A DNA stretch of 64,000 nucleotides. Source: Nocardia arthritidis (GTDB lineage: Bacteria; Actinomycetota; Actinomycetes; Mycobacteriales; Mycobacteriaceae). The translations under genes and the position numbers were made by a program. The DNA is taken from contig NZ_CP046172.1 in NCBI RefSeq assembly GCF_011801145.1, positions 5,580,001 to 5,644,000 on the forward strand. The letters are read 5' to 3'. Shown here in pieces: positions 41,012 through 42,918 of this stretch (its first letter is position 1; every line of letters begins with the position of its first letter). The notes under the pieces are model-generated. The model did no database searches and was not told where the DNA came from. It was given only the letters and a program-made list of their open reading frames with translations.

Positions 41012-42202
41012 TCACCACATGGCGGGTAACCGCTCGGGTATCCGCTTCATGAACCGAGTGCGCCAGACCAGCTGATCAATGGGCACAGCCAGCCGCGGTG
41101 CCGGCACGCGCGCGAGCAACGCCTCGATGCCGATCTGGGCATGGCGTCGGCCGAGCGCGGTGGCCGGGCAGTAGTGCCTGCCGCCGCCGAACGAGAGGTG
41201 GGCGCTCGCGTTCGGTCGCGCGAGATCGACGGACTCCGGATCCGGGAAGACCGCAGGATCGAAGTTCGCGCCCTCGACCAGCACCAGCACCAATTCCCCG
41301 CGCCGGACCAGGATTTCGCCGAGCCGCACGTCCTCGGTGGCCAGGCGCGGCAGGCCGTCGCCGATCGAGAGGTTGATCCGCAGCAACTCCTCGACCCCGG
41401 CGGGGATGAGCGCGGGTTCGGCGGCCAACCGGGCCGAAAGGTCCGGATTTCGCAGGAGCGAGAACAGCGCCATGGTGAGGAATCCGCCGGTGGAGATCAC
41501 CCCGGCGCCGAAGAGGGTGACGCCGACGGTGGCCAGCAGTTCCTCGGGCACCCGCGCGTACTCGGGATCGGTACGCAGCGCGGCCAATTCGGCCATCAGG
41601 CCGGTGGTCGCCGGATCGTCGAGCCGCTCGCGCATGTAAGCGATGTCACGATCCCAGTTGAGTTTCGCGGCCGGAATGGGTTCGGCGGAGTTCATGAACG
41701 CGATGTGCAGGCTGCGCATCAGCTTCGGCGCGTCGTCCTGCGGGATGCCGAGGATGTGGCAGTGCAGCGCGGCGGCGTACGGGTCGGCGTAATCGTTGCG
41801 CAGGTCGGCCGGTGCGCCCTCGGCGAGCAAGCGATCCACCAGCGCTGCGGCCGTCGCCCGCAGGAATTCCTCGAGCCCGGGCGCTTTCGGGTTGAGCGCC
41901 TTCATGACGGCCCTGCGCAGTCCGGCGCCGGTGATGTTGCCCATATTGTTGACCACCTCCGGTGGGATGGTCAGCGCGTACTGTCTCGGCACGCCCGGCG
42001 CCGAGGTCTCCTTCAGCGAGAAGCGGGGATCCTCCAGCACCTGCCTGCACAGTTCGTAGGAGCTCACCAGCCAGGCCGGATCGCCCGCGATGGTGCGCAC
42101 CCGCCGAACCGGTTGCGCCGCACGCAGTTCCGCGACCTCCGCGGGGATACGATCGCCGCGCGCCGAGAACGGGAAATCGAGCATGGTTTCGGTGGCGGTC
42201 AT
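41012..42202 (-). CDS. cyp121: Mycocyclosin synthase-like cytochrome P450 (CYP121 family)
   Basis: A 396-residue P450, the same length as M. tuberculosis CYP121, and close to it throughout: PFSARGDRIP, LVSSYELC, PPEVVNNMGN, KAPGLEEFLR, LNWDRDI, GAGVISTGGF, IPAGVEELLRIN, FGGGRHYCP with heme Cys345, and RRHAQIGIEALL. CYP121 couples the two tyrosines of cyclo(L-Tyr-L-Tyr) to give mycocyclosin. Compared with CYP121 as I recall it, contact residues Gln385 and Arg386 read Met and Lys here, and Val78 reads Ile. The ATG overlaps the CDPS stop (ATGA). Electron partners are not encoded nearby. Confidence 0.93.
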   Translation of the reverse strand: MTATETMLDFPFSARGDRIPAEVAELRAAQPVRRVRTIAGDPAWLVSSYELCRQVLEDPRFSLKETSAPGVPRQYALTIPPEVVNNMGNITGAGLRRAVMKALNPKAPGLEEFLRATAAALVDRLLAEGAPADLRNDYADPYAAALHCHILGIPQDDAPKLMRSLHIAFMNSAEPIPAAKLNWDRDIAYMRERLDDPATTGLMAELAALRTDPEYARVPEELLATVGVTLFGAGVISTGGFLTMALFSLLRNPDLSARLAAEPALIPAGVEELLRINLSIGDGLPRLATEDVRLGEILVRRGELVLVLVEGANFDPAVFPDPESVDLARPNASAHLSFGGGRHYCPATALGRRHAQIGIEALLARVPAPRLAVPIDQLVWRTRFMKRIPERLPAMW

Positions 42203-42918
42203 CGGGACGCTCCTTCGGAACCGGTGTCGGGGGTGACGATGGCGTGGCCCTGGTTGCGCGACGCGCGCAGCCCGGCGCCACGCGCGTAGAGCAGGTCGGC
42301 CATCGGCAGCAGCTGGTGATAGCAGTTCAGCGAGGAGGGCACGCCGAGGATCGCCGGGGTGTCGAGGAATAGCGGCGCCTCGGCGCAGATGTAATCCAGA
42401 CATACCTCGAGCTGGCGCCGCGTCGCTTGTCCGGCAACGGTTTTCGTTGCCAGGAAGCGGGCCACCAGCGAGTGGCAGACCGCGCGGAAGTCGGCGTCGG
42501 CGGCCAGCCTGCCGGTGATATCGCGATGGAGTTCCCGGTAGGCGGCGTTCGAGCGCAGCTCCGACATCGGGCGGACGAAGATCCGGGTGCGATCCGGATC
42601 GACGGCGGCGGCCGCCGCGGTGATCTTCGCGCGAACGCCGCGCAGGTTCTTCACCGCCTTACGGCGCGCCTCCTGCGCGGAATACCCTGACGCCTCGAAC
42701 ATTTCGGCGACATGGATATCGGTGTACACGAAGTCGACCCGGTCGAAACGGGCGCGGCCCCAGTGCGCGAGATCGCGCAGCCGCCGAGTCGAGAAGTAGC
42801 TGTTGCCCGGCGAGACCCCGATGACGGCGTGATCGGCATCGCGGTAGATGACCTCGCAGTGCGGTGTGAACGGGCGGACGAGAAAGCTTGGCGTAACAGC
42901 GAGAGCGGGTGATGTCAC
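42199..42918 (-). CDS. Cyclodipeptide synthase (cYY synthase type, NYH subfamily)
   Basis: A 239-residue CDPS. The GVSPGNSYFS motif (residues 34-43) holds the catalytic Ser36 that takes the aminoacyl group from tRNA. Y176 and E180 (YICAE) are the acid-base residues. N39, Y200 and H201 define the NYH subfamily, and FLDTPAILGVPSS is conserved. M. tuberculosis Rv2275 is this enzyme and makes cyclo(Tyr-Tyr) from Tyr-tRNA. The CYP121-like gene overlaps it, so the product is probably cYY or a related cyclodipeptide. The GTG start has a weak AAAGG 10 nt upstream. Confidence 0.94.
   Translation of the reverse strand: MTSPALAVTPSFLVRPFTPHCEVIYRDADHAVIGVSPGNSYFSTRRLRDLAHWGRARFDRVDFVYTDIHVAEMFEASGYSAQEARRKAVKNLRGVRAKITAAAAAVDPDRTRIFVRPMSELRSNAAYRELHRDITGRLAADADFRAVCHSLVARFLATKTVAGQATRRQLEVCLDYICAEAPLFLDTPAILGVPSSLNCYHQLLPMADLLYARGAGLRASRNQGHAIVTPDTGSEGASR

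What the first reader, a model, noticed from the sequence alone, without database searches (positions are those of the whole stretch)
41012..42918. Mycocyclosin-type operon (CDPS plus CYP121) outside Mycobacterium, with a DHA2 exporter downstream
The overlapping pair encodes a complete NYH-type cyclodipeptide synthase and a P450 of the same length and same motifs as M. tuberculosis CYP121. The M. tuberculosis pair (Rv2275-Rv2276) makes cyclo(Tyr-Tyr) and mycocyclosin. The other gene content of this window does not look mycobacterial. A dedicated-looking MFS gene follows in the same direction, which may explain how the product leaves the cell.
Basis: partly seen in the sequence, partly recalled or inferred. 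Interest (0 to 1): 0.8.

Follow-up and report, generated by a model that had tools for sequence, protein, structure and literature searches.

The report
Nocardia cyclodityrosine synthase–P450 gene pair
A Nocardia chromosome carries the two-gene pathway that makes a small cyclic molecule from two tyrosines, a pathway already known to be widespread in soil actinobacteria; its oxidising enzyme has the pocket of the Streptomyces versions, which also attach purine bases, and not that of the tuberculosis enzyme.

Summary
Window 42199-42918 (-) encodes a complete cyclodityrosine synthase (NCBIfam NF052540, 403 bits, cut-off 300). It overlaps by 4 nt a 396-residue CYP121-family P450 (41012-42202, -), 69% identical to CYP121 and 73% to Streptomyces GymB1. 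A DHA2-type transporter follows. The genome is a Nocardia.

Two interpretations fail. "Outside Mycobacterium" is not new: CYP121 homologues are published in 176 of 721 CDPS clusters, and six Streptomyces gym pairs were expressed. The transporter is not dedicated: 145 of 150 Nocardia genomes have a close homologue, 7 of 150 the synthase, and in the six other carriers it lies elsewhere.

The refinement is the P450 pocket. Five mycobacterial sequences have Asn74/Phe280/Arg386; 90 of 90 distinct non-mycobacterial cYY-group sequences, window included, have Tyr/Ile/Lys, as does purine-coupling PtmB. The mycobacterial pocket looks derived. The Nocardia enzyme is best predicted to be Gym-type: mycocyclosin plus guanine/hypoxanthine adducts of cyclo(Tyr-Tyr). 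No chemistry was tested.

The parts
42199..42918 (-). cyclodityrosine synthase (NYH-type CDPS), 239 aa, GTG start
   Evidence: NF052540 403 bits, cut-off 300; PDB 2x9q/Rv2275 347 bits; NYH residues and the Asn equivalent to Rv2275 N251 present
41012..42202 (-). CYP121-family P450, Gym-type pocket, 396 aa, ATG start overlapping the CDPS stop by 4 nt (ATGA)
   Evidence: PDB GymB1 8q6z 640 bits, CYP121 1n40 613 bits; Tyr/Ile/Met/Lys at CYP121 positions 74/280/385/386
39378..40838 (-). DHA2-type MFS transporter, 486 aa: a neighbour, judged not part of the pathway
   Evidence: TIGR00711 277 bits, cut-off 230; close homologue in 145 of 150 Nocardia genomes, elsewhere in the 6 other CDPS carriers
40839..41011 (-). 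173-nt spacer between P450 and transporter; its part nearest the transporter resembles the transporter's leader in other Nocardia
   Evidence: alignment with leaders of transporter homologues at 12 other Nocardia loci, conservation judged by eye
40915..40941 (-). promoter-like motif GATGAATT-N13-CCGTCT belonging to the transporter
   Evidence: 1 match in the window (0.04 expected by shuffles at up to 1 mismatch); 1 exact match in the 10.0-Mb genome

Best explanation
A two-gene biosynthetic unit of the gym type. The CDPS joins two tyrosyl groups taken from Tyr-tRNA into cyclo(L-Tyr-L-Tyr). The P450, translated through a 4-nt overlap, binds it above the heme, makes phenoxyl-type radicals and couples the two rings to mycocyclosin. 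With free guanine or hypoxanthine present it probably also makes intermolecular purine adducts (guatyromycine-type), because its pocket is the Gym type and not the mycobacterial one. Redox partners and any export would come from genes elsewhere. Shown here: gene identity, overlap, conserved residues, family placement, pocket residues, conserved pairing. Inferred from characterised relatives: cYY as product, mycocyclosin. Inferred more weakly: purine coupling.
For: Cyclodityrosine equivalog well above cut-off. Asn at the position reported as essential for tyrosyl recognition (N251 in Rv2275; PMC5816076 passage; mapped). CDPS directly upstream of the P450 on the same strand in 86 of 86 loci. P450 closest in the PDB to GymB1. 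Y74, I280, K386 in 90 of 90 distinct non-mycobacterial cYY-group sequences, window, GymB1 and the second solved gym-like P450 8q6x included, and in none of 5 mycobacterial ones; the same letters in PtmB and 9o4d (read from the alignments). Six gym pairs expressed in S. albus gave mycocyclosin and guatyromycines A and B (PMC10092475 passages). PtmB coupled cWW to guanine and hypoxanthine (PMC13122648 passage; matched to PDB 8yxt by name).
Against: No product was measured for any Nocardia pair in what I saw. By tree the P450 groups with Nocardia, Longimycelium and mycobacterial CYP121 (99/94), nearer to CYP121 than to GymB1, although its pocket letters are Gym-like. No experiment I saw links Y74/I280/K386 to purine coupling. 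At position 337, and partly at 66 and 309, the outgroups carry the mycobacterial letter, so not every difference is a mycobacterial change. That GymB1 is one of the six expressed P450s is recalled; the primary paper is not held.
Confidence: 0.72

Rival explanations
1. Mycocyclosin only: the P450 performs just the intramolecular C-C coupling described for M. tuberculosis CYP121, and purine adducts are absent or trivial.
For: Tree: Nocardia P450s and mycobacterial CYP121 form one group with Longimycelium and one unnamed protein (99/94); 69% identity to CYP121; contact residues T77, V82, V83, N85, M86, A167, F168, W182, T229, A233, S237 are identical.
Against: Ligand-shell positions 74, 280, 385 and 386 have GymB1's letters.
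Confidence: 0.25
2. Three-gene operon in which the DHA2 transporter is a dedicated exporter of the product.
For: Same strand, 173 nt downstream. Efflux genes, most often MFS, are common near CDPSs in general (PMC5767969 passage). Three of four mycobacterial loci have a different MFS gene directly after CYP121.
Against: Close homologue in 145 of 150 Nocardia genomes against 7 of 150 for the CDPS, and at another place in all 6 other carriers. Its leader resembles that of 12 Nocardia loci without the pair. No close relative of it near the pair in the DNA held for 80 of 80 named loci and 6 of 6 Nocardia loci; three of the 80 have a 27-29% MFS upstream, M. simulans a 28% one downstream. Any MFS directly downstream on the same strand: 5 of 87 loci, window included (two entries corrected).
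Confidence: 0.06
3. The pair makes another aromatic cyclodipeptide (for example cYF) and the P450 acts on that.
For: Characterised cYY-group CDPSs also release cYF and cYA (PMC5816076 table).
Against: Asn at the tyrosyl-selecting position and equivalog-level score.
Confidence: 0.04

Closest known systems
gym clusters of Streptomyces (CDPS + P450; GymB1, PDB 8q6z)
   Same: Two adjacent genes, cYY synthase then CYP121-family P450; pocket residues Y74, I280, M385, K386; best PDB hit (640 bits)
   Different: 73% identity only; Nocardia host; groups by tree with Nocardia, Longimycelium and mycobacterial sequences; activity untested
M. tuberculosis Rv2275 / CYP121 (Rv2276)
   Same: Order and pairing, P450 length (396 aa), about 70% identity in both proteins, most substrate-contact residues
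   Different: 14 separating positions in the P450 in the first set, including N74/F280/R386 in mycobacteria against Y/I/K here
PtmB and related cWW-purine coupling P450s (PDB 8yxt; 9o4d is near in sequence)
   Same: Same P450 family, sharing Y74, I280, K386 (read from alignment)
   Different: Window scores 493 bits against PtmB, below GymB1 and CYP121; substrate of PtmB is cWW (PMC13122648 passage)

Membership tests
Cyclodityrosine synthase (NCBIfam NF052540) | Score above the curated equivalog cut-off | tested here: met
   403 bits against 300; three related outgroup CDPSs score 200-274, below it
Cyclodityrosine synthase (NCBIfam NF052540) | NYH motif and catalytic-position residues (positions recalled) | tested here: met
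   S36, N39, Y176, E180, Y200, H201
Cyclodityrosine synthase (NCBIfam NF052540) | Asn at the Rv2275 N251 position (tyrosyl selection) | tested here: met
   N198; role from PMC5816076 passage
Cyclodityrosine synthase (NCBIfam NF052540) | cYY as product | not testable with these tools
   needs expression and LC-MS
CYP121 family / mycocyclosin synthase | Full-length homology, heme Cys, contact residues N85, F168, W182, S237 | tested here: met
Mycobacterial CYP121 proper | N74, F280, R386 in the ligand shell (5 of 5 distinct mycobacterial sequences) | tested here: not met
   Y, I, K in the window
Gym-type P450 | Y74, I280, K386 and partner cYY CDPS | tested here: met
   this residue definition is mine, drawn from the alignment
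Gym-type P450 | Makes mycocyclosin and purine adducts | not testable with these tools
   needs enzyme assay
CDPS-P450-transporter operon | Transporter conserved next to the pair | tested here: not met

The most novel reading that the evidence does not exclude
Purine coupling is the old function of this P450 family, since it is reported both outside the cYY group (PtmB) and inside it (gym P450s). The Nocardia enzyme keeps it, and the mycobacterial lineage rebuilt its pocket (Y74 to N, I280 to F, K386 to R) and specialised on mycocyclosin. The pocket that drug designers target in CYP121 would then be a lineage-specific innovation, with the Nocardia enzymes among its closest relatives that kept the older pocket.
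Probability: 0.35. Interest if true: 0.55.

Novelty: new member of a known kind. Interest (0 to 1): 0.32.

Why it matters
The pair itself is ordinary for actinobacteria. It matters because Nocardia P450s are among the closest relatives of mycobacterial CYP121 that carry the ancestral-looking pocket residues, which gives a natural comparison for which residues separate pure ring coupling from purine coupling. It also shows that neither CYP121-family genes nor mycocyclosin should be treated as a mycobacterial marker.

Tried and rejected
Dedicated exporter: rejected after the genus-wide search, neighbourhood comparison and leader alignment.

Hidden third gene: clustering of ORFs within 6 kb of the P450 in 87 loci (11 cut short on each side) printed its 25 largest clusters; the largest covers 24 of 87 loci, and many are shadow ORFs. 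An aspartokinase-like ORF (named by eye) lies upstream in 16. Which lineages each cluster covers was not tallied.

Foreign composition: CDPS and P450 G+C are 67.6% and 68.8% against 67.7% for the window, so no sign of recent transfer there.

Mycobacteria nested inside Nocardia: the quick tree and the 68-row careful tree both place them there, but the AU test does not reject mycobacteria lying outside all other cYY P450s (p = 0.136), so I do not claim it. One Nocardia clade is rejected (p = 0.003); that group was named before the first tree and holds one unnamed protein, P0124. For one search I dropped L191, L186, L083, L094 and every second row of L029-L105 apart from five kept.

Counting slip: my notebook says 84 distinct non-mycobacterial sequences; the recount gives 83 in the first set and 90 in the larger one.

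Defence library: no match for three proteins. Promoter scan: no sigma-70-like site; three terminator-like sites, all on the + strand, 1.7 expected. In one search the offsets printed for L178 and L179 are wrong because stop-to-stop frames ran into the P450; one search corrects them.

Structure prediction and fold search were not run; relatives at 69-73% identity are already solved.

Full report
What is there. On the minus strand, a 239-residue cyclodipeptide synthase (42199-42918) is followed, with a 4-nt ATGA overlap, by a 396-residue P450 (41012-42202), then a 173-nt gap and a 486-residue DHA2-type transporter (39378-40838). The window sits in a 10.0-Mb single-contig genome with one match to the Pfam CDPS family.

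Synthase. It scores 403 bits against the NCBIfam cyclodityrosine synthase equivalog (cut-off 300) and is identical to Rv2275 at 158 of 226 aligned residues. It keeps the NYH residues, residues at positions I recall as catalytic, and the asparagine that PMC5816076 (passages) reports as essential for tyrosyl recognition. Three CDPSs beside outgroup P450s score 200-274 and fall below the cut-off, so the assignment discriminates.

P450. The best solved relatives are GymB1 (640 bits) and CYP121 (613 bits), ahead of 8q6x (573), 9o4d (509) and PtmB (493). Identity is 73% to GymB1 and 69% to CYP121. GymB1 is identical to the P450 of Streptomyces flavidovirens DSM 40150 in locus L073.

Distribution. 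The CDPS equivalog is over cut-off in 7 of 150 Nocardia genomes, the window's included. In the class sample 14 of 394 match at E <= 1e-70, 10 of them at 69% identity or more, the window's included. A named-genome scan confirmed 202 relatives and kept the best 80: mostly Streptomyces, also Streptacidiphilus, Yinghuangia, Actinomadura, Longimycelium, three Nocardia and one Mycobacterium. In 86 of 86 loci tested, window and three duplicates left out, the CDPS lies directly before the P450 on the same strand, with gaps of -17 to 111 nt. Three outgroup loci at 55-57% identity also have a CDPS upstream; one at 41% (L191) shows none in the 1.5 kb held. Published work agrees: CYP121 homologues in 176 of 721 clusters (PMC5767969, passages) and a widely distributed gym locus (PMC10092475, passages). 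My search for mycocyclosin, CYP121 and Nocardia together found one paper, and CYP121 with Nocardia and P450 found four (listing seen). I saw no report of product from a Nocardia pair, but the library holds only open-licence PMC papers.

Pocket. I aligned the window, GymB1, CYP121 and 90 locus sequences; recounted, these are 83 distinct non-mycobacterial and 5 distinct mycobacterial sequences. Fourteen positions separate the two sets, fixed or nearly so, one of them a one-residue gap. Positions 74, 280 and 386 (CYP121 numbering) appear in the ligand-contact table of PMC11084333 (passages), which also describes Arg386 and Gln385 in the water network around the substrate. Mycobacteria have Asn, Phe, Arg; all the others have Tyr, Ile, Lys. 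Adding 12 loci and 8q6x gives 90 distinct non-mycobacterial cYY-group sequences, still 90 of 90 Tyr, Ile, Lys, with four more distant P450s set apart as outgroups. Position 385 is Gln in three and Ala in two mycobacterial sequences and Met in 90 of 90 others. Three outgroups (L188-L190) have Tyr, Val or Ile, and Lys; the most distant (L191) has Asp, Ile, Val. PtmB and 9o4d have Tyr, Ile, Lys (read). On positions 9, 73, 74, 347 and 386 the three nearer outgroups side with the non-mycobacterial set, and none has Phe280, so those mycobacterial states look derived. Against this, at 337 all outgroups, and at 66 and 309 two of the three nearer ones, carry the mycobacterial letter, and 223 is mixed in the larger set. 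The 80 named loci are those closest to the window, so more distant members are under-sampled.

Phylogeny. The window joins P0123 (Nocardia sp. NPDC052566) and the unnamed protein P0124 (100/97). The CDPS tree holds the same kind of group, Nocardia with Mycobacterium and Longimycelium (SH-aLRT 98), so the two genes appear to have travelled together. Mycobacteria outside all other cYY P450s is not rejected (p = 0.136).

Transporter. A close homologue (E <= 1e-100) is in 145 of 150 Nocardia genomes, including all six other CDPS carriers, where it lies at another place. At twelve such loci no other window gene reaches 50% identity over half its length, except one 50% match in L164 to window ORF 48218-50794, on the opposite side of the transporter. 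The stretch before its start codon aligns across those 12 loci, with the block GATGARTT-N13-CCGTCT-N7-TGTGG recurring with variation, judged by eye. The exact pattern GATGARTT-N13-CCGTCT occurs once in the genome. The transporter therefore most likely carries its own control region and is a chance or at most loosely useful neighbour. On the other side, three of four mycobacterial loci have a different MFS gene directly after CYP121, so export beside the pair may exist there.

Mechanism. Tyr-tRNA dependent synthesis of cYY, then P450 oxidation of both phenols. Intramolecular coupling gives mycocyclosin, as reported for CYP121 and the gym enzymes; coupling to guanine or hypoxanthine gives guatyromycines, as reported for gym pairs. 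The second branch is predicted for the window enzyme from shared pocket residues only.

Verdict. A real, complete and well-placed new member of a known two-gene family; ordinary as a discovery, with one testable point of interest in the pocket residues.

Noticed in passing
L091 11207-12781; L178 2746-4167; L179 2832-4256: In three of four mycobacterial loci an MFS gene follows CYP121 directly in the same direction (the other two copies are 82-83% identical to that of M. simulans; 28% to the window's transporter; DHA2 model matched below its cut-off); the fourth (L176) has none in the 4.4 kb held downstream.
   Followed up: partly
window 40915-40941: Promoter-like block GATGARTT-N13-CCGTCT recurring before a genus-wide transporter in Nocardia and matched once in the whole genome; it may be the target of a dedicated sigma factor or regulator.
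   Followed up: partly
window 37684-39372: A second DHA2-like transporter gene, convergent with the first and 5 nt from its end; best-scoring curated model is tetracenomycin efflux TcmA, far below cut-off.
   Followed up: no
window 34349-37780: One open frame of 1143 aa joins a prolyl-oligopeptidase-type peptidase to a beta-lactamase-family domain; a region just upstream (about 33057-34436) is 68% alike over 461 residues, suggesting a partial tandem copy.
   Followed up: no
window 43269-44798: M14 zinc carboxypeptidase gene with G+C of 62.7%, about 5 points below the window, matched in 15 of 150 Nocardia genomes at E <= 1e-60.
   Followed up: partly
L146: The M14 homologue of one Nocardia genome (G092) is reported with one TGA inside the frame.
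   Followed up: no
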